Positions 12,391-20,497 of a DNA stretch of 64,000 bases are shown in pieces. The stretch is from Burkholderia sp. HI2500 (GTDB lineage Bacteria > Pseudomonadota > Gammaproteobacteria > Burkholderiales > Burkholderiaceae): positions 558,001-622,000 of the forward strand of contig NZ_NKFL01000007.1 of the NCBI RefSeq assembly GCF_002223055.1, read 5' to 3'. Position 1 is the stretch's first letter; every line of letters begins with the position of its first letter. The position numbers and the translations under genes were made by a program. The notes below the pieces were generated by a model. That model had not been told where the DNA came from. It ran no database searches and saw only the letters and a list, made by a program, of their open reading frames with translations.

Positions 12391-13227
12391 ATGGCCGAGG
12401 ATCGAATTTCCTACGACGCGTTCGTCAGGTTCCTGGCGACGCCGCTGAACGACGGCCGGCCGTTCGTGCTGGAGACGCAGCACGCGCTTTCGCTGCACTT
12501 CGACCATTTCGGCACGCAGAGCTTCATGTCGCTCCGGGATCCGGGCCGGCTCGAGCTCGGCTATACGCGCGTGATGATGGGCTTTCTGCTGCTGCAGCCC
12601 GAGCCCGCGCACATCTGCATGCTCGGGCTCGGCGGTGGTTCGCTGGCGAAGTACTGCTACCGGCACTTGCCCGGCGCGACGATCGACGCGGTCGAGATCA
12701 ATCCGGACGTGATCGCGCTGCGTGACGTTTTCAGGATTCCCGTTGATGACGGCCGGTTCACGGTGGTGTGCGCCGACGGCGCGGATCATCTGGACAGGGC
12801 GGATGTCCGGACGGACGTGATCCTGCACGACGCGTTCGTCGCCGACGGCATGCGGGGCCGCTGTACGGGCGCCGCATTCCTCGCCGCATGTCACGCGCGC
12901 CTGAGCGAAAACGGCGTGCTGGCAATCAACTTCATGGACGACGATCCCGCGCTGCCGGAGCATCTCGAGCAGTTGCGATCCGTATTCGGCATGTCGTATA
13001 CGCTGGCGCCGTGCGGCGACGACAACAACTTCATCGCGTTCGCATGGAAGGGTGGCAGCCGGCTGCCGTCGCTGCGGATCCTGCTCGAACGCGCACTGGC
13101 GTGTGCGCGGGCCGGCGAGCTCAAGCTGGCGGCCACGGCGAGGCGGATGAAGGCCGGGGAGAGCGTCGACCCGCAGCGGCTGGTGATGCGTGCGCAGCCG
13201 CACGGGCGATGGGAAATCGGCGCGTAG
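12391..13227 (+). CDS. Spermidine-synthase-like methyltransferase-fold protein
   Basis: 278 residues. It has the Rossmann core of polyamine aminopropyltransferases: CMLGLGGGSLAKYCY (nucleotide-binding loop), IDAVEINPDVIAL (acidic residue that binds the adenosine ribose), VVCADGADHL and VILHDAFVAD. The N-terminal beta-strand domain (FVLETQHALSLHFDHFGTQS) is also recognisable. The canonical aminopropyl-acceptor DxYD motif is not evident (LHDAF instead), so the true substrate may differ from putrescine. It starts 43 bp after the PhnA-like gene. Confidence 0.72.
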   Translation: MAEDRISYDAFVRFLATPLNDGRPFVLETQHALSLHFDHFGTQSFMSLRDPGRLELGYTRVMMGFLLLQPEPAHICMLGLGGGSLAKYCYRHLPGATIDAVEINPDVIALRDVFRIPVDDGRFTVVCADGADHLDRADVRTDVILHDAFVADGMRGRCTGAAFLAACHARLSENGVLAINFMDDDPALPEHLEQLRSVFGMSYTLAPCGDDNNFIAFAWKGGSRLPSLRILLERALACARAGELKLAATARRMKAGESVDPQRLVMRAQPHGRWEIGA

Positions 13228-13532: not shown

Positions 13533-14291
13533 TCAGCGCCTGCTGCGGAGCAACGCGAGCAGGTCGTCGATCACCGGCACGATCGCGAGCGTGACGAGCA
13601 CCGCGGCAAGCGGCACGGTCGACACGTAGCCGACATGCTTGAAGCCGATCGCGCCGGCCAGGCCGCCGATGAAGAACGACGCGAGCATCGTCGCGTGAAT
13701 CCGCAGTTTCGAGCGGTTGGCGACGACCGCCTGCGCGTCGACGTCGACCGCCGACCGGTTCCAGTAGAACAGCTTCCCGAGCTCGATGCCGAGGTCGGTC
13801 ACGATGCCCGTCATGTGCGTCGTGCGGATCTCCGCGCCCGACAGCTTCGTGATCGTCGCGTTCTGCAGCCCCATGATGAAGCACAGCAGCGTCACGGTCA
13901 CCGGCACGAAGAAGGTTTCCCACAGCGCGAGGTGGCTGCCGAGCAGCCCGAACAGGAGCAGCAGCGCGGCCTCGACCAGCAGCGGCAGCATGAACTGGCT
14001 GTGCAGGCCGCGACGGCGGCCCCAGTTGACGAGGATCGCCGAGCAGCTGGCGCCGATCAGGAACGACCCCAGCGAGCTGATGCCGGCCAGCGCGAGCCGC
14101 ACGTCGCCGAGCGCCGTCTGGTCGGCGATCGCCGACACGATGCCGCTCATGTGCGACGTGTATTGCTTGACCGCGAGGAAGCCGCCGGCATTGGCCGCGC
14201 CGGCGACGAACGCCAGCGAAAACCCGAGCTGACGGTTCGCGGTCGCGCTGCGGTGTTTTCCCGTCAGGTTTCGAAAGTACTGCGCTGGCAT
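13533..14291 (-). CDS. YoaK-family (DUF1275) inner-membrane protein
   Basis: 252 residues with about six hydrophobic segments: LGFSLAFVAGAANAGGFL, ALAGISSLGSFLIGASCSAI, LPLLVEAALLLLFGLLG, VTVTLLCFIMGLQNA, MLASFFIGGLAGAIGF and LAAVLVTLAIVPVIDDLL. The N-terminal VAGAANAGGFLAVKQYTSHMSG and the GLQNATITKLSGAEIRTTHM stretch (opening ~residue 144) are hallmarks of YoaK/DUF1275. The function of the family is unknown. It is transcribed divergently from the 14562 gene, and the palindrome at 14417-14435 lies in the shared upstream region. Confidence 0.85.
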   Translation of the reverse strand: MPAQYFRNLTGKHRSATANRQLGFSLAFVAGAANAGGFLAVKQYTSHMSGIVSAIADQTALGDVRLALAGISSLGSFLIGASCSAILVNWGRRRGLHSQFMLPLLVEAALLLLFGLLGSHLALWETFFVPVTVTLLCFIMGLQNATITKLSGAEIRTTHMTGIVTDLGIELGKLFYWNRSAVDVDAQAVVANRSKLRIHATMLASFFIGGLAGAIGFKHVGYVSTVPLAAVLVTLAIVPVIDDLLALLRSRR

Positions 14292-14416
14292 AGGGGCTCA
14301 GGGGCTTCGCTCAATCGCCGCGAATCGCGGGCACGGACGTGACGACCGGCACCGGACGGCAGGGCGGGCACGCCGCCTGCCCACAGGTGCCGGGTCTCTC
14401 GAATCATGTGACGAAC

Positions 14417-14435
14417 ATGATAATGCCATTATCAT
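14417..14435. promoter_or_regulatory. Perfect 9-1-9 palindrome, Fur/Zur-like operator candidate
   Basis: ATGATAATG-C-CATTATCAT is a perfect inverted repeat of 9 bp around one base. It contains the GATAAT/ATTATC half-sites of Fur-box DNA, although the spacing differs from the standard 19-bp Fur consensus. It lies 126 bp upstream of the yoaK-like start and 127 bp upstream of the 14562 start, so it could control both divergent genes in response to iron, zinc or manganese. Confidence 0.6.
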
Positions 14436-14561
14436 ACTCTGTTAGTCGAATAGGGCTTTCAGTACAATGTCATCCGGCGCGGCCTGACAGCGGCCCGACT
14501 GCGGCTTCGCTGCCGCACGGCCGCGCCGCCCGCCTTCGCGATCACTTCTGCCCACCGCTTC

Positions 14562-14912
14562 ATGACCCCGATCAAGTTCATTCTTCGCTATACGGCGATC
14601 CCGTTCACGGCCATCGTGGCTGTGGTGATCTGGACTGTCATACCATCGTCGAAAGAGATCGATGCGAGACAATATGCGGCGCTGTCGCGCGCGTACGCGA
14701 GTTTCCCGCTGCCGTTCCGGCGCGAGATCTCGGAAACGATGGACCACGGCCGGATCAACGACCGGCGCTACCAGGCGCTCGTGCGCGATTCGCTGGGCAA
14801 TGGCGTCGCGCTGGACTGGCCGGCGTCGGGCGTCGGCGCGCTCGCCGACGAGCGGCACAAACTGGCCGAACTGCTTCAGGCCGATTCCGATCTTCAAGGG
14901 CATCACCAATGA
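14562..14912 (+). CDS. Small membrane-anchored protein of unknown function
   Basis: 116 residues with one N-terminal membrane segment (about residues 9-28, TAIPFTAIVAVVIWTVIP) and a soluble, charged remainder (REISETMDHGRINDRRYQ). It resembles no family I can name. The stop overlaps the start of the DUF2909 gene (ATGA), so the two are translationally coupled. The Fur/Zur-like palindrome is about 130 bp upstream. Confidence 0.65.
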   Translation: MTPIKFILRYTAIPFTAIVAVVIWTVIPSSKEIDARQYAALSRAYASFPLPFRREISETMDHGRINDRRYQALVRDSLGNGVALDWPASGVGALADERHKLAELLQADSDLQGHHQ

Positions 14913-15121
14913 AAACTCTGCTGGTTTCCGTGGCATTCGCGATGATCATCGCGAGCCTGATCTTCGCGCTGTATTTCATGAATCACGATCGCGGCAAGTC
15001 CAAGCGGATGGCATGGTCGCTCGCGGCACGCGTCGGGCTGTCGGTCACGCTGTTCCTGTCGCTGCTGATCGCTTACAAGCTGGGCTGGATCGAGCCGACC
15101 GGGTTGCCGATCGGGCGCTGA
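14909..15121 (+). CDS. DUF2909 twin-transmembrane protein
   Basis: 70 residues with two hydrophobic helices (about 3-22 and 40-58) separated by a positively charged loop (NHDRGKSKRM). The pattern and length match DUF2909, a small inner-membrane protein common in beta- and gammaproteobacteria and often near cytochrome oxidase assembly genes. No such genes are here. It overlaps the preceding gene by 4 bp and is followed by a terminator. Confidence 0.75.
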   Translation: MKTLLVSVAFAMIIASLIFALYFMNHDRGKSKRMAWSLAARVGLSVTLFLSLLIAYKLGWIEPTGLPIGR

Positions 15122-15127
15122 AAGGCG

Positions 15128-15153
15128 AACGCCCCGTTGCATGCGGGGCGTTT
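15128..15153 (+). terminator. Intrinsic terminator after the DUF2909 gene
   Basis: AACGCCCCG / CGGGGCGTT (15128-15136 with 15144-15152) forms a 9-bp stem with a 7-nt loop, and the right arm runs into TTT. It begins six bases after the DUF2909 stop and should end the 14562-15121 transcript. Confidence 0.75.
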
Positions 15154-15614
15154 GCGCAAATGCGAGTTTGGCTCTCTCATCGATCTATTGTGATAAGAAA
15201 ACTTATCGTGATGATGGGGTTGTGTGATCCAAAATCAGGTTTCGCACGACGCGCGACAGAGACTGCCCACGCTGCAACGGCAGCGCAGGGGCGTTGACAC
15301 GGGTCTTCGCGAGACCACGGCCAGTGACAAACCTGAATTCGCGACGTGCAGCCTCATGAATTCACGAGACCTTCGCACCTTCCGGCCAACGTTGAACGGC
15401 CAGGTGACAACCTTGCTTCGCAAACCGCGACAATTTCATTCTGGTCAACGCTACCCGGCACACGGCACCGCGCGTGCAACAGTTGTGATGCGCAGAGGCC
15501 CCATGGACAAAGCCGCCGCGCTCGCTCGCCGAGCGCGGCGTGCTACTCTCGCGAACGGCACCGGCCAGGACAGTTCAGTGGTGCGCGACCCGTCAACATG
15601 GTGGATTCACGCAT
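15154..15614. other. Intergenic region upstream of the histidine kinase, with GATAAG-AAAA-CTTATC
   Basis: About 460 bp without a supported gene. A perfect inverted repeat GATAAG-AAAA-CTTATC is present at 15192-15207 in an AT-rich stretch. It is a plausible operator or promoter region, although it lies about 400 bp before the kinase start. The remaining sequence gave no recognisable protein in any frame. Confidence 0.45.
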
Positions 15615-17057
15615 ATGTACTCGATCTTGCCTGCGTTCGTATCTGCGTTGTTTCTCGGGTTCGGCCTCTACGTGCTGGCCACCAAGGGGCTCACGCGGGT
15701 ATCCGTCCCGTTCGCCCTGATGTGCGCGACGACCTTCGTCTGGCAGGGAACGTGGGCCTTCCTGTTCCAGACCACCGACGCGGACGTCGCCAACGTGCTG
15801 GTCAAGGCCGGCTATCTGTTCATCCTTTTTCTGCCGACGACCTTCTATCATTTCGTGACGGAGATCGTGTCGCGTCGGGACGAGCGGCCGATCATATTCG
15901 CGTCCTACGGACTCAGCGTCCTGCTGGCCGTGCTGCTGGTCACGAGCAATGCGGTCGTCGATGGATTCCGCCCGCATTTCTTTGGCCCGTATCCCAAGGC
16001 GGGCCCGCTGCATCCGTTGCACGTCGTGCAGACGGTACTCCTGGTCTGCCGCAGCGGTTGGCTCCTGATCGAGGCAAGACGTCAGGGGCGGGCGCGAGAC
16101 GTCCGGCAGTTGCTCACGCAATGCCTCGTCAGCCTGGGCCTCTACTCGCTCGCGGCGACCGACTACGCGGTGAACTACGGCGTCGACTTCTATCCGGTGG
16201 GGGTGCTGTTTATCGCGATCAGTCTCGGGATACTCGCGACGTCGATCGTCCGCTATGGGCTGATGGGTCCCTATCTGCTGGCCGCGACGGTCGCGCACGA
16301 AGTGGCCACGCCGCTGGCGGCGATCGGCCTGCACGCGGACGAGCTGCGCGCTGTCCTGCCGGAGCTGCTGCGCGGGTATCGGCTGGCGGTGCAGCACCGG
16401 TTGTGCGCCGACAGTTTGTATCCCGGACAGCTGGAGCGGCTGCCGACGCTTGCGTCGTCGATCCGGCGCCAGGTCGACACCACCAGCACGGTGGTCGAGA
16501 TGTCCCTGGCGTCCTTTACGCTGGACCGACTCGATCGCCACAGCTTCGCGGCCTATCCGATACGGGGCTGTGTCGACGCCGCCGTGGATCGCTTTCCGTT
16601 CCGTCCGGGTGAGCGGGACCGCGTATCGGTCGACGCGATCGATACGGACATCCGGTTTTTCGGCTCCGACTCGCTCGTGATCTTCGTGATCTTCAATCTG
16701 CTGAAAAATGCCCTGTACGCGATCCACGCCAACGGCCGTGGGCAGATCGAGATCGACGCGCATCGCAGCAACGGTTACTGCGTGGTGCGTTTCAGCGATA
16801 CGGGGCCGGGCATCGCCCCTGATGTGCTCCCTCAAATTTTCGACGCCTTTTTCTCGACCAAGTCGCACGGTCGCGGCGCCGGCATGGGCCTGAGTTTTTG
16901 CCGCCGCGCATGTGAAGCGCTCGGTGGCACCATCACGTGTGAATCCGTTCCCGGCATCCGCACCACGTTCACGATCCGGCTGCCGGAGCCCGGGGCGCCG
17001 GCGGACCCGACACTGAACGGTCCGCCGGCGCTCCCCCCGCGCTATCGCATCGGGTAG
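15615..17057 (+). CDS. Membrane sensor histidine kinase with CqsS/LqsS/PhcS-like core
   Basis: 480 residues. The N-terminal ~220 residues contain about seven hydrophobic helices with no periplasmic sensor domain, as in kinases that sense hydrophobic signals within the membrane. The H-box is ATVAHEVATPLAAI with His228. The ATPase domain has the N-box FFGSDSLVIFVIFNLLKNAL, the G1 box FSDTGPGIAP, the F-box DAFFSTK and the G2 box RGAGMGLSFCRRACEALGG. The 'FGSD-L...FNLLKNA' and 'GLSFCRR...GG' signatures are those I associate with quorum-sensing kinases CqsS, LqsS and PhcS. There is no receiver domain. No autoinducer synthase gene of the CqsA/LqsA or PhcB type lies in the window. Confidence 0.8.
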   Translation: MYSILPAFVSALFLGFGLYVLATKGLTRVSVPFALMCATTFVWQGTWAFLFQTTDADVANVLVKAGYLFILFLPTTFYHFVTEIVSRRDERPIIFASYGLSVLLAVLLVTSNAVVDGFRPHFFGPYPKAGPLHPLHVVQTVLLVCRSGWLLIEARRQGRARDVRQLLTQCLVSLGLYSLAATDYAVNYGVDFYPVGVLFIAISLGILATSIVRYGLMGPYLLAATVAHEVATPLAAIGLHADELRAVLPELLRGYRLAVQHRLCADSLYPGQLERLPTLASSIRRQVDTTSTVVEMSLASFTLDRLDRHSFAAYPIRGCVDAAVDRFPFRPGERDRVSVDAIDTDIRFFGSDSLVIFVIFNLLKNALYAIHANGRGQIEIDAHRSNGYCVVRFSDTGPGIAPDVLPQIFDAFFSTKSHGRGAGMGLSFCRRACEALGGTITCESVPGIRTTFTIRLPEPGAPADPTLNGPPALPPRYRIG

Positions 17058-17070
17058 GGCGGTCTCACAT

Positions 17071-17544
17071 TCAGTTCGCGGCGGACGGCAGGATCAGCTC
17101 ATACGCCTTGACCCGCTCGATGATGCCCGGCGGAAACCGGCGGATCCGCTTGTCGGAACCGGCAAACACGATTTGCTGATACCCCAGCGACACCTGCCGC
17201 CCGTCCACGTAGAAGCGAAACAGCAGGTAGGCCGAACATTGCCGAACCTCGAACGTATTGAGAAAGCAATCGACGCGCTGGAACGGAAACGTCTCATGGA
17301 CGTATTCCTGATGCGCGCGCTTCGTCACGAATGCCCCGCCGGCCCCCATCAGGTTGTTGTGGATGCATTCGTGAAACCAGCGTTCACGGCACACGCCCTG
17401 CCATTCGAAATAGCGTGCGAAATAGGTATTCATGAAGGCATTGGAATCCTTGAGGTAAATGTCCACCACATGGTGGAAGGTTTTCTCGGAAATATGGGCC
17501 GTTTCGTTGGAAAGGACGTGAAGAATCGCGTCTCGCGTCAACAT
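17071..17544 (-). CDS. Hot-dog-fold acyl thioesterase-like protein
   Basis: 157 residues. The stretch NAFMNTYFARYFEWQG then VCRERWFHECI (about residues 34-60) matches the N-G-N-x-Y-F-x-x-Y-x-x-W-Q-G-x-C-R-E signature of 4HBT-like thioesterases, particularly those of enediyne/polyketide pathways. The rest (FQRVDCFLNTFEVRQCSAYLL, FRFYVDGRQVSLGYQQIVF) fits the hot-dog strands. It is encoded opposite and between the kinase and response-regulator genes, ends 13 bp from the kinase stop, and diverges from the regulator. The start is supported by GGAG six bases upstream. A role in making or removing an acyl signal is possible but unproven. Confidence 0.65.
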   Translation of the reverse strand: MLTRDAILHVLSNETAHISEKTFHHVVDIYLKDSNAFMNTYFARYFEWQGVCRERWFHECIHNNLMGAGGAFVTKRAHQEYVHETFPFQRVDCFLNTFEVRQCSAYLLFRFYVDGRQVSLGYQQIVFAGSDKRIRRFPPGIIERVKAYELILPSAAN

Positions 17545-17580
17545 GGATAACTCCTTGAATCGCTACTGGCGGTAGCGGCG

Positions 17581-17603
17581 CATTCCTTCAACGAGAAGGA
17601 ATG
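17581..17603. repeat. Hairpin CATTCCTT-N7-AAGGAATG
   Basis: Perfect 8-bp inverted repeat with a 7-base loop, 37 bp upstream of the thioesterase start, in the divergent region between the thioesterase and response-regulator genes. It could be an operator or an mRNA leader hairpin of the thioesterase transcript. Confidence 0.5.
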
Positions 17604-17703
17604 GCCCGATTCTCCCCGTGCAATTCCGCGGAGCGGTGCAGTCGAAACGTGCCGAATTAGCGAATGAAGAGCAGTTGATGTGCGTCGCACTTTCGCCGGA
17701 TAA

Positions 17704-17728
17704 TTGCCGCGATAATCATTCGCGGCAA
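17704..17728. promoter_or_regulatory. Inverted repeat TTGCCGCGA-N7-TCGCGGCAA
   Basis: Perfect 9-bp arms around TAATCAT, 47 bp before the response-regulator start and 160 bp before the thioesterase start. The dyad symmetry and central AT-rich spacer suit a dimeric regulator at the divergent promoters. The regulator encoded at 17776 is an obvious candidate ligand but lacks a recognisable DNA-binding domain. Confidence 0.55.
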
Positions 17729-17775
17729 AGCGTCTCCGTTGCCGCATTATCTTTTGCTGATTTATCGAGACCCTT

Positions 17776-18714
17776 ATGCAACCCTTCGTCAGGCAGCCGG
17801 TGCTTTACCCCGTGTCCGTGGTATTTGTCGACGACAATCCGGATTTCCTGCAGGCGCTGCGGGGCGCATTTCCGGACGAACGCCTGAACCACTTTTTTAC
17901 GCACCCCCGGGCGGCGCTCGACTTCGTGTCGTCGCGTGACGCGGAGATACCCCCCACGGCTGCGGACTATTTCGGTGCGGAGAAAACCGGCGGGAATGCG
18001 ATCGGCGAGGATGCGCTCGCCGATCCTGCCCGATTCGAGGCGGTGGGCGCGGTGGTCGTCGACTATTCGATGCCGGAGGTCGACGGCATCCAGTTCCTGA
18101 CCTCCATCCGCAACGCGAACTGCATGAAAATCCTGCTCACCGGCATCGCCGACGAGCGCGAGGCGGTGGCCGCGTTCAACGCGGGACTGATCGATTGCTA
18201 TCTGAAGAAAACCGACGTCGAGATGGCGCGCAAGCTGGCGAGCGCGCTGGACGACGCGAAACGCAAGTGCTGCGCGGCCCGCGGGCACATCAGCCTGCAT
18301 GAAGCGGGAGCGACCTACCGGGATCCACGGATCGTCAAGCTGATCGATGAGGTGGCCGCGCGGGAAGGCATCGTCGAATACTACTGGCGCCCCAATCAGG
18401 ACGCGGTGCTGATGTTCGATGCCGCCGGCGCGCCCAGTGTATTTCTCGCCTGGAGCGAAGAGGACTGGGCGTTCCACTGCGATATCGTGTCCGACGCGGG
18501 CGGACCGGCCGAATTGCGCCAAGGCATGGAAGCGCGCCGCATCATGCCGCTATTCTGGCCATTTCAGGCCTATCGGCCGGGCCTCGCGGACATTCACCGT
18601 GCGGCCCCGCTTCCCGTTCCGGGATGGCACGGCACGTTTTATAGCTGGATCCGGCTGGATGATCCGGCCACCGAGCACGAACTGCCTACATTGGCAAAAT
18701 GGCGTCACGCGTAA
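17776..18714 (+). CDS. Response regulator with an insertion and an unrecognised C-terminal domain
   Basis: 312 residues. The N-terminal receiver has Asp-Asp in VVFVDDNPDF, phosphoacceptor Asp96 in AVVVDYSMPEVDG, and the conserved Lys144 in CYLKK. A segment of about 30 residues (AADYFGAEKTGGNAIGEDAL region, residues 56-85) is inserted before the phosphoacceptor strand. After residue 170 there is no helix-turn-helix, GGDEF, EAL, HD or kinase domain. Instead there is a compact, aromatic-rich domain (EYYWRPNQDAVLMFDAAG, AWSEEDWAFHCDIVSDAGGP, LFWPFQAYRPG, WHGTFYSWI). Its neighbour is a lone sensor kinase, the probable partner. The output mechanism is unknown. Confidence 0.75.
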   Translation: MQPFVRQPVLYPVSVVFVDDNPDFLQALRGAFPDERLNHFFTHPRAALDFVSSRDAEIPPTAADYFGAEKTGGNAIGEDALADPARFEAVGAVVVDYSMPEVDGIQFLTSIRNANCMKILLTGIADEREAVAAFNAGLIDCYLKKTDVEMARKLASALDDAKRKCCAARGHISLHEAGATYRDPRIVKLIDEVAAREGIVEYYWRPNQDAVLMFDAAGAPSVFLAWSEEDWAFHCDIVSDAGGPAELRQGMEARRIMPLFWPFQAYRPGLADIHRAAPLPVPGWHGTFYSWIRLDDPATEHELPTLAKWRHA

Positions 18715-18884
18715 AGGATCATCCGCTCATTTTCAAACGGGCGGTGCTGTCGTCGTCTCGGTAGCCACTCAAACTGGAACAATCCCTGTCAATGTTGTCA
18801 GTTATCAGCGGCGCGGGATTTTGTTTCAATACACACCTTGTTCCGAGGGCCACCCAATATTCCAATAGACGGCACATCCGTTCA

Positions 18885-18912
18885 GTGCAGACCGTTGACC
18901 AACGGTCTGCAC
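18885..18912. repeat. Perfect 28-bp palindrome, 13-bp arms
   Basis: GTGCAGACCGTTG-AC-CAACGGTCTGCAC. The arms are perfect and only two bases separate them, so as DNA it is a strong dyad. As RNA a two-base loop would be strained but the stem very stable. No T run follows. It lies 171 bp after the response-regulator stop in a gene-free region of about 500 bp, immediately before a second inverted repeat. Confidence 0.75.
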
Positions 18913-18919
18913 GCGCTCT

Positions 18920-18949
18920 CAATATCGATCGATTCTCGATCTGATATTG
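18920..18949. repeat. Second inverted repeat CAATATC...GATATTG
   Basis: Outer arms CAATATC / GATATTG enclose inner arms GATCGA / TCGATC with a TTC centre and one unpaired base. It starts 8 bp after the 28-bp palindrome. Two adjacent dyads outside any gene suggest an operator cluster, an attachment-like site or a structured small RNA. Confidence 0.55.
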
Positions 18950-19209
18950 TCACCACCCTTCACAAAATCTGCAGCGGCAAACGATCCGCAAAATTTCCGA
19001 CTGATGCGTTGAAGCGCGTTTTCACGGCGCGTCGATTGAGCTCGTTTGCCGGAATGCGTCCGCCGGGCCCGTCATGCATTGAAACGGACGCCCTCAGGCG
19101 CCCAACCCCATTAATACGCGCCGGAATGCGGCAATCGAACTGAAATCGAAAGCCGTGCAGTGATCGTCGCGAAATGCGGGATCGGACCCGCATCCGATCG
19201 AGCGGTATT

Positions 19210-19340
19210 TCAACGGCCTGTTATCCGCCCGACTCCGCCCGACTCACTCGCAAAGTCATGGCGATACGCGCGGGGCGAGCAGCCCACGATGCGCTTGAAT
19301 GCATGTCCGAACGCGCCATCCGAGTCGTATCCGAGCCCAG
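19210..19340 (-). pseudogene. Relic of an AraC-family regulator (C-terminal HTH only)
   Basis: Read on the minus strand, this gives the second helix-turn-helix of AraC regulators almost perfectly: LGYDSDGAFGHAFKRIVGCS then PRAYRHDF, and a stop at 19210-19212. Upstream, the same frame shows no first helix-turn-helix or effector domain and no good start, so only about 43 codons of the C-terminus remain. It is positioned divergently from the TauD-type dioxygenase gene, where a regulator of the sulfur island would be expected. Confidence 0.65.
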
Positions 19341-19469
19341 CACGCGAATGTCCTGAAGGGGCCGTGCACGTACCCGACCCGGCGACGGAATCGTGACGGC
19401 CGCCGCGATCGGCCGTTTTCGCACGTGAGCCCGCCGTCCGCCGCCGCGCCGTATGCGGGAGCAGCGATC

Positions 19470-19490
19470 TTTATCAGCGCAGCAGATAAA
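19470..19490. promoter_or_regulatory. Inverted repeat TTTATC-N9-GATAAA upstream of the dioxygenase
   Basis: Perfect 6-bp arms with 9-bp spacing, 78 bp upstream of the TauD-type gene. The geometry (21 bp, AT-rich arms) fits a LysR-type operator such as CysB/Cbl/SsuR sites that control sulfonate genes, but the match is by geometry only. Confidence 0.4.
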
Positions 19491-19567
19491 CGTATCGGAA
19501 TCGCTTCGTTGACGCCGTCCGGCACGCACTCGTAGATTCGCGTTTTGACCGAATCAGGGGCCGTGCC

Positions 19568-20497
19568 ATGACGACTACCGCCATCCGCGACGACGTATCG
19601 CTTTGCGCCGGGCATCCGCCCGCGTCGCGGCCGCGCGTTGCGGCGCAGCATTTCGACATCGTGCCGTTCGATGCGCCGCTCGGTGCCGAAGTGGTCGGCC
19701 TCGACCTGTCGCAACCGCTCGACGCCGCCGACTTCGCGCGCATTCATCGCGCGCATCTCGACCATCACGTGCTGGTGTTTCGCGACCAGCGCATCACGCC
19801 GGACGAGCACATCGCGTTCAGCCGCCGCTTCGGCCCGCTGCAGATCCACGTGCTGCACCAGTTCGCGCTCGCCGGCCATCCGGAGGTGCTGATCGTGTCG
19901 AACGTCGTCGAGAACGGCAAGCCGATCGGGCTCGGCGACGCGGGCCATTTCTGGCACTCCGACCTGTCGTACAAGGAGAAGCCGAGCCTCGGCTCGCTGC
20001 TGCATGCGCAGGAACTGCCGGCCGAAGGCGGCGACACGCTGTTCGCGAACATGCATCTCGCGTGGGACACGCTGCCGGCCCATCTGCGCCGCGCGGTAGA
20101 AGGGCGGCGCGCCGAGCATACGTATCTCGCACGCTATGCGGAGCTGCAGGCGCGCAATCCGTGGCGGCCGAACCTGTCGCCCGAGCAGATCGCGCAGGTT
20201 GCCGCGGTCGTGCATCCGGTCGTGCGCACGCATCCGGAAACGGGCCGCAAGGCGCTGTTCGTCAGCGAGCATTTCACGACGCGCATCGTCGGGCTGCCCG
20301 ACGACGAAAGCCGCGCGCTGCTCGACGAGCTGTTCGCACACAGCGTGCGTGCCGAGCATGTGTACCGGCACCCATGGCGCGAGCACGATCTCGTGTTCTG
20401 GGACAACCGTTCGCTGATGCATCTCGCCGCCGGCACGCCCGACCACCTGCCCCGCAAGCTGTACCGCACCACGATTGAAGGCGACGCGCCTTTCTGA
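19568..20497 (+). CDS. TauD/TfdA-family alpha-ketoglutarate dioxygenase
   Basis: 309 residues. Non-haem Fe(II)/2-oxoglutarate enzyme of the taurine dioxygenase family, which releases sulfite from sulfonates or opens related substrates. The iron facial triad is visible as His-x-Asp in HFWHSDLSY (about residue 138) and the distal His in SLMHLAAG near residue 285. The 2-oxoglutarate-binding Arg lies in LPRKLYRTTIEGD close to the C-terminus. It is the first gene of a run with a sulfonate-type ABC transporter and flavin monooxygenases, so an organosulfonate substrate is likely. TauD itself is one possibility. Confidence 0.85.
   Translation: MTTTAIRDDVSLCAGHPPASRPRVAAQHFDIVPFDAPLGAEVVGLDLSQPLDAADFARIHRAHLDHHVLVFRDQRITPDEHIAFSRRFGPLQIHVLHQFALAGHPEVLIVSNVVENGKPIGLGDAGHFWHSDLSYKEKPSLGSLLHAQELPAEGGDTLFANMHLAWDTLPAHLRRAVEGRRAEHTYLARYAELQARNPWRPNLSPEQIAQVAAVVHPVVRTHPETGRKALFVSEHFTTRIVGLPDDESRALLDELFAHSVRAEHVYRHPWREHDLVFWDNRSLMHLAAGTPDHLPRKLYRTTIEGDAPF

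What the first reader, a model, noticed from the sequence alone, without database searches (positions are those of the whole stretch)
15615..18949. Kinase, thioesterase and odd response regulator form a candidate acyl-signal sensing system
Seen: a lone histidine kinase with a multi-helix membrane sensor and a kinase core resembling CqsS/LqsS/PhcS; a divergent hot-dog thioesterase; and a response regulator with an extra insertion and an unrecognised output domain. Known: CqsS, LqsS and PhcS sense hydrophobic quorum signals (alpha-hydroxyketones or 3-OH methyl esters). Inferred: the thioesterase may make or remove an acyl-type signal that the kinase senses. No CqsA, LqsA or PhcB gene lies in the window, so this would be a new wiring of that family.
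Basis: partly seen in the sequence, partly recalled or inferred. Interest (0 to 1): 0.8.

Follow-up and report, generated by a model that had tools for sequence, protein, structure and literature searches.

The report
Thioesterase-linked Lqs-like sensor with RNA leader
Three neighbouring Burkholderia genes - a membrane sensor kinase, a lipid-cutting enzyme and a regulator related to a known cell-to-cell signalling protein - stay together in many related bacteria, and the enzyme's messenger RNA begins with a conserved folded leader, so this looks like an unstudied lipid-sensing circuit.

Summary
The three genes are real: kinase 15615-17057 (+), thioesterase (TE) 17071-17544 (-), regulator 17776-18714 (+). 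The "unrecognised" regulator is LqsR/PhcX-family: its best PDB match by sequence and by fold is LqsR, insertion included. The kinase joins an LqsS-type core (216-461) to a different, HisKA_7TM sensor. The TE is nearest to enediyne thioesterases and keeps their catalytic arginine. This genome shows no AHK synthase or PhcB.

Of 107 genomes with the kinase, 106 hold an LqsR-family regulator; the exception has lost the phospho-histidine.

New: the TE mRNA has a two-hairpin leader (compensatory changes in 12 of 15 pairs), found before TE in 80 of 80 loci, with no Rfam match.

Best reading: an acyl-sensing two-component module whose ligand level the TE sets. Linkage is shown; ligand, direction of the TE and RNA function are inferred.

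The parts
15615..17057 (+). Sensor histidine kinase (480 aa): HisKA_7TM sensor (residues 9-217, about 15639-16265), LqsS-type DHp and ATPase core (residues 216-461)
   Evidence: Pfam; hhalign to LqsS
16296..16298 (+). Codon of the phospho-acceptor H228
   Evidence: H in 78 of 81 aligned kinases, Q in 3; position computed from the ORF
17071..17544 (-). Hot-dog thioesterase (157 aa), 4HBT_2, enediyne-thioesterase type; D33, N35, Y45, R53 invariant in alignment A2 (23 sequences)
17386..17388 (-). Codon of R53, aligned with the arginine replaced in EspE7 R35A (9ccr)
   Evidence: position computed from the ORF
17542..17614 (-). Structured 5' leader of the thioesterase mRNA, up to the start codon
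   Evidence: covariance model R1 match, 70.2 bits
17581..17603 (-). Leader hairpin 1 (9 pairs, 8 of them with compensatory changes)
17561..17577 (-). Leader hairpin 2 (6 pairs, 4 with compensatory changes; loop begins CGC)
17776..18714 (+). LqsR/PhcX-family response regulator (312 aa): receiver with insertion about residues 54-88, LqsR-type output domain
18061..18063 (+). Codon of the phospho-acceptor D96
   Evidence: D in 58 of 58 regulators; position computed from the ORF

Best explanation
A self-contained acyl-sensing two-component module. SHOWN: thioesterase and kinase are kept together, tail to tail; the kinase goes with an LqsR-family regulator; the thioesterase mRNA has a conserved two-hairpin leader. 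INFERRED: the thioesterase cleaves an acyl-ACP or acyl-CoA and so sets the level of a hydrophobic ligand (free acid, or a ketone if a beta-keto acid is released and decarboxylates, as for CalE7). The 7TM sensor detects that ligand in the membrane, H228 passes phosphate to D96 of the LqsR-type regulator, and that regulator acts through its non-DNA-binding output domain. The leader tunes thioesterase translation or mRNA life and so the ligand supply.
For: TE-kinase adjacency 80 of 80 named loci, 99 of 100 genomes, the same 11 plasmid records for both proteins, and again in one genome outside the family. Regulator in two different arrangements, 40 and 17 of 80 loci, the second 39-115 bases upstream of the kinase on its strand. 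Of the 57 loci with the regulator, none lacks H228; Q occurs only in the three non-Cupriavidus loci without a nearby regulator, in 6 of 6 further plasmid copies read from that group, and in G675, the one kinase genome of 107 with no LqsR-family regulator. Receiver residues D19, D20, D96, T122, K145 invariant in 58 of 58. TE residues D33, N35, Y45, R53, E54 invariant in A2; R53 aligns with EspE7 R35. Leader covariation.
Against: Seven of 107 genomes have the kinase without the thioesterase, so the kinase can do without it. In the H228Q group the kinase lacks its phospho-histidine yet stays under purifying selection (median dN/dS 0.075 sensor, 0.058 core) with TE mostly kept, so TE may serve the kinase protein rather than a phosphorelay. 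In 20 of 80 loci (Cupriavidus) no regulator lies within 10 kb. No ligand, TE substrate or phosphotransfer is known. Closely related genomes are not independent.
Confidence: 0.5

Rival explanations
1. The thioesterase removes or caps the ligand: the kinase senses an acyl thioester-derived or exogenous lipid and the thioesterase is the feedback arm that lowers it.
For: The kinase is kept without TE in 7 of 107 genomes; a private translational leader on TE fits a tuned feedback enzyme as well as a signal maker.
Against: No TE-bearing genome of the 100 lacks the kinase; nothing in the sequence separates making from removing.
Confidence: 0.22
2. Membrane-lipid homeostasis without cell-to-cell signalling: the 7TM kinase gauges the acyl state of its own membrane and works with the thioesterase as a pair, partly independent of phosphotransfer.
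For: TE and kinase stay paired when the kinase has lost H228 and the regulator is missing, with dN/dS far below 1.
Against: In most loci H228 and the ATP-binding residues are intact (78 of 81 for H228) and the regulator is of a family known from quorum sensing (PMC10653808, passages seen).
Confidence: 0.2
3. An ordinary Lqs or Phc system: the kinase senses alpha-hydroxyketones or 3-hydroxy methyl esters made elsewhere.
For: LqsS-type core and LqsR-type regulator; in Trinickia terrae a complete lqsS-lqsR-lqsA set lies next to the module.
Against: No AHK synthase over the family cut-off and no PhcB match in this genome; LqsA near TE in 1 of 80 loci; sensor unlike LqsS.
Confidence: 0.05
4. Neighbours by common descent only, with no functional link of the thioesterase to the two-component pair.
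For: All holders but one belong to one family, and the genomes are related.
Against: Flanking genes differ between genera while the module stays (13 representative loci); the regulator sits on either side; TE-kinase pair also outside the family.
Confidence: 0.03

Closest known systems
LqsA-LqsS-LqsR of Legionella pneumophila
   Same: Kinase core and the whole regulator family
   Different: Sensor domain different, no LqsA in this genome, a thioesterase and its RNA leader in its place
PhcX (RSc2734) and the phcBSRQ locus of Ralstonia solanacearum (PMC10653808, outline and passages seen)
   Different: Our regulators form a separate clade with 100/100 support and a long stem; no PhcB match in this genome
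CalE7, DynE7, EspE7, SgcE10 enediyne/polyene thioesterases
   Same: Only sequence matches in the PDB at E 1e-3 (6 of 6); catalytic Arg position shared; fold
   Different: Stand-alone beside a sensor kinase; polyketide synthase neighbours not examined systematically. By fold alone, YbgC-type thioesterases match about as well, and the top fold hit is 3ck1
Shk (RSp0220) of R. solanacearum GMI1000 (PMC12993560, passages and section 16 seen)
   Same: A lone kinase with seven predicted transmembrane regions that affects quorum-sensing-dependent traits
   Different: Orthology not shown here; its reported partner is RSc0040

Membership tests
LqsR/PhcX response-regulator family | Full-length similarity to LqsR including insertion and output domain | tested here: met
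   6sy9 E 1.8e-29 over residues 3-267; Foldseek rank 1, E 1.5e-22
LqsR/PhcX response-regulator family | Intact receiver residues (DD, phospho-Asp, Thr, Lys) | tested here: met
   D19, D20, D96, T122, K145 in 58 of 58 rows
Lqs alpha-hydroxyketone quorum-sensing system | LqsS-type kinase core | tested here: met
   hhalign 100%, E 8e-67, 216-461
Lqs alpha-hydroxyketone quorum-sensing system | LqsS-type sensor domain | tested here: not met
   hhalign sensor against sensor 0.5%; PF16927 in ours, not in two LqsS. A missed match is weak evidence by itself
Lqs alpha-hydroxyketone quorum-sensing system | AHK synthase LqsA/CqsA in the genome | tested here: not met
   NF005526 best 189.0 bits in G000, cut-off 428; over the cut-off in 8 of 18 genomes tested
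Phc quorum-sensing system | PhcB methyltransferase in the genome | tested here: not met
   No match at E 1e-10 in G000; found in 3 of 9 genomes tested
Enediyne-type hot-dog thioesterase | Catalytic Arg (EspE7 R35) with Asn and Tyr of CalE7 (N19, Y29, roles recalled) | tested here: met
   R53 aligned with EspE7 position 35; N35, Y45, R53 invariant in 23 sequences
Enediyne-type hot-dog thioesterase | Linked iterative polyketide synthase | not tested
   Neighbours were clustered but not searched for polyketide synthases
HisKA_7TM sensor kinases (PF16927) | Score over the Pfam cut-off | tested here: met
   43.5 bits, cut-off 28.6
Known structured RNA family | Match to an Rfam 15 model | tested here: not met
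   0 matches at E 1 in 17400-17900; 0 at gathering in 14000-20000
Riboswitch | Ligand-dependent control of expression | not testable with these tools
   Only position and covariation are known

The most novel reading that the evidence does not exclude
A new class of lipid quorum-sensing circuit: an enediyne-type thioesterase releases a fatty acid or ketone signal (beta-keto acid then decarboxylation) under control of its own new RNA leader; a 7TM sensor grafted onto an LqsS kinase core reads it and drives an LqsR-type regulator. In one Paraburkholderia lineage the kinase has become a catalytically dead receptor that still partners the thioesterase.
Probability: 0.25. Interest if true: 0.85.

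Novelty: new variant of a known kind. Interest (0 to 1): 0.6.

Why it matters
A compact circuit that joins lipid release, a 7TM receptor, an LqsR-type regulator of unsolved output and a covarying RNA leader makes several open questions testable: what LqsR-family output domains do, whether hot-dog thioesterases can make bacterial signals, and why a histidine kinase is kept after losing its histidine. A 2026 review of quorum sensing in the Burkholderia cepacia complex does not use the words LqsR, LqsS, PhcS or hydroxyketone (PMC12838280, word search of its text).

Tried and rejected
Second sensor kinase beside TE in Ralstonia-like genomes: my note after said so; in G420 it is a 7TM-GGDEF protein. 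In G404 and G435 a second copy of the kinase does flank TE.

Shk (RSp0220) as ortholog of our kinase: not shown. RSp0219 is listed as a hydroxylase (PMC4371752, passage). In seven unnamed-genome regions read I noticed hydroxylase-like proteins only in two, not next to the kinase. The PhcK paper (PMC7694676) is not held.

AHK link: LqsA near TE in 1 of 80 loci only, so not taken as general.

Leader as a regulon: 220 genomes gave 44 matches of 45.6 bits or more, all 44 directly before TE. The next scored 37.2 bits (G490, without the CGC loop, no TE found there) and the rest 28.9 or less; these I treat as chance. Of 45 TE genomes with handles up to 510 only G457, whose TE starts 38 bases from a contig end, lacks it; the genome list was printed only in part, so 45 rests on handle numbers. 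No leader in the TE-like locus outside the family, nor in the seven TE-less kinase loci.

Promoter and terminator scans gave no more than shuffles. Literature: LqsR with thioesterase gave three papers, none on this by title and abstract; thioesterase, riboswitch and related words gave one unrelated paper. This is an open-licence library only.

Rows dropped: in the list I counted only the places down to E 9.1e-133 (109 places, 107 genomes) and left out the weaker ones, 5.3e-61 and above, which match mainly the kinase core (LqsS-type). The co-occurrence p-values ignore kinship and are not used as probabilities. In the H228Q group the TE of L204 matches in two pieces and may be broken; dN/dS used 9 and 10 sequences, few of them independent.
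Full report
ANATOMY. The kinase (15615-17057, +), the thioesterase (17071-17544, -) and the regulator (17776-18714, +) are open frames at the reported place. The kinase ends 13 bases before the end of the thioesterase, tail to tail; 231 bases separate the start codons of thioesterase and regulator. Pfam gives HisKA_7TM, HisKA (below cut-off) and HATPase_c for the kinase, 4HBT_2 for the thioesterase and one receiver domain for the regulator.

REGULATOR. Sequence search of the PDB gives one strong hit, LqsR (6sy9, E 1.8e-29, residues 3-267), with the insertion and the output domain aligned. An AlphaFold2 model (mean pLDDT 86.3; low in 61-76, the insertion) matches 6sy9 at E 1.5e-22; the next chain is a plain receiver at 2.4e-7. 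In a tree of 106 rows (101 different) our regulators form one clade of 56 rows, support 100/100, on a long stem (1.91), apart from the groups that hold the lqsA-linked regulators and the phc-linked one (root at midpoint, long branches present). LqsR's output domain is described as GGDEF-like and without cyclase activity in vitro (PMC10653808, passage).

KINASE. Profile comparison with 21 LqsS-type kinases aligns residues 216-461 at probability 100% (E 8e-67), while the sensor regions compared alone give 0.5%. So the core is LqsS-type and the sensor is another one.

THIOESTERASE. The profile of 23 relatives finds six PDB sequences at E 1e-3 or better, all enediyne or polyene thioesterases or labelled simply thioesterase. 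R53 aligns with the residue that is alanine in the EspE7 R35A structure. CalE7 hydrolyses an ACP-bound acyl chain and then decarboxylates the beta-keto acid (PMC7713262, passage). The model has mean pLDDT 76.9 and is poor at 32-43, the active-site loop; its best fold hit is 3ck1, followed by 5vpj and CalE7, with YbgC-type chains close behind.

LINKAGE. A scan of 84,980 species genomes with the thioesterase confirmed 157 loci; the best 80 were kept. In 80 of 80 the kinase lies tail to tail with TE. In 398 genomes of the family TE was found in 100, the kinase (down to E 9.1e-133) in 107 and an LqsR-family regulator in 153. TE and kinase are adjacent and convergent in 99 of 100; in G562 they lie 117 kb apart; no TE genome lacks the kinase and seven kinase genomes lack TE. 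In this genus 19 sampled genomes have TE and the same 19 have the kinase and a regulator. In plasmid records both proteins hit the same 11. In the 80 loci the regulator lies beyond TE in 40, just upstream of the kinase in 17, and not within 10 kb in 23: 20 Cupriavidus and L020, L021, L023. Outside the family TE was found in 1 genome of a 240-genome sample of the order that also held two family members with it; there too the kinase is its convergent neighbour. Neighbours beyond the module differed between the 13 representatives examined.

A NATURAL EXPERIMENT. H228 is His in 78 of 81 kinases. The three Gln rows are L020, L021 and L023. Six Paraburkholderia plasmid copies that I read (of eight hit) and unnamed G675 also have Gln; those plasmid records show no regulator, and G675 has none at E 1e-30 in the whole genome. 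106 of 107 kinase genomes have an LqsR-family regulator; G675 is the exception. These copies look like one lineage, so this may be a single event. The Gln kinases are open and under purifying selection: median dN/dS 0.075 (sensor) and 0.058 (core) over 36 pairs, against 0.182 and 0.195 over 45 pairs of a more diverged His set (NG86, different depths, so the two sets are not directly comparable).

LEADER RNA. Upstream of TE the DNA keeps two inverted repeats whose arms change together. On 28 sequences the two-hairpin structure has 94.0% of cells paired (shuffles 79.2, sd 1.1; 0 of 500 as high), 12 of 15 pairs with compensatory change, and slid controls of 34.9-46.2%. On 39 sequences not used for the model (aligned to it, hence leaning towards it; many are close relatives of the training rows) the figures are 96.2% and 13 of 15. 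The model hits directly before TE in the window and in 80 of 80 loci (one cut by a contig end), 27 of which trained it, and in three Ralstonia-like loci outside the training genera. In 220 genomes its 44 matches of 45.6 bits or more all lie directly before TE; this genome has one copy. No Rfam match. The first three loop bases of hairpin 2 (CGC) are present in 39, 36 and 39 of the 39 rows. The window's leader folds at -31.4 kcal/mol, z -5.0; of six tested, L043 was weak at z -1.63.

SYNTHESES ABSENT. The AHK synthase model is over its cut-off in 8 of 18 genomes tested, not in this one. PhcB is not found here at E 1e-10. LqsA lies within 10 kb of TE in 1 of 80 loci, Trinickia terrae, next to a full lqsS-lqsR-lqsA set.

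READING. The linkage, the LqsR identity, the sensor exchange and the leader are shown. That the thioesterase sets the level of a lipid that the sensor reads is inference from linkage and enzyme class; making and removing cannot be told apart here. That TE stays with a kinase lacking its histidine speaks for a bond between TE and the receptor that does not need phosphotransfer, and is the main reason why the mechanism stands at 0.5.

Noticed in passing
L020, L021, L023, L190, L202-L207: Kinase orthologs with Gln in place of the phospho-His, some with further changes at ATP-binding positions, kept open beside TE and without the regulator nearby.
   Followed up: partly
L179:5722-7380: In a Ralstonia-like genome (G420) a HisKA_7TM-GGDEF protein lies on the other side of TE, the same sensor class linked to c-di-GMP chemistry.
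   Followed up: partly
   Followed up: yes
G404:C59 and G435:C2: Two kinase copies (about 48-54% identical to ours) flank one TE.
   Followed up: no
window 17057-17071: Kinase and TE genes end 13 bases apart on opposite strands; the gap is -4 to 302 bases in the 99 adjacent genomes' list, so their transcripts may overlap.
   Followed up: no
window 14000-20000: G+C 0.618-0.626 against 0.65-0.69 in most neighbouring blocks, and the module is patchy within the genus, as for acquired DNA.
   Followed up: no
window 12391-13227: Spermidine-synthase-like methyltransferase fold protein about 2.4 kb upstream; not PhcB by whole-genome search.
   Followed up: partly
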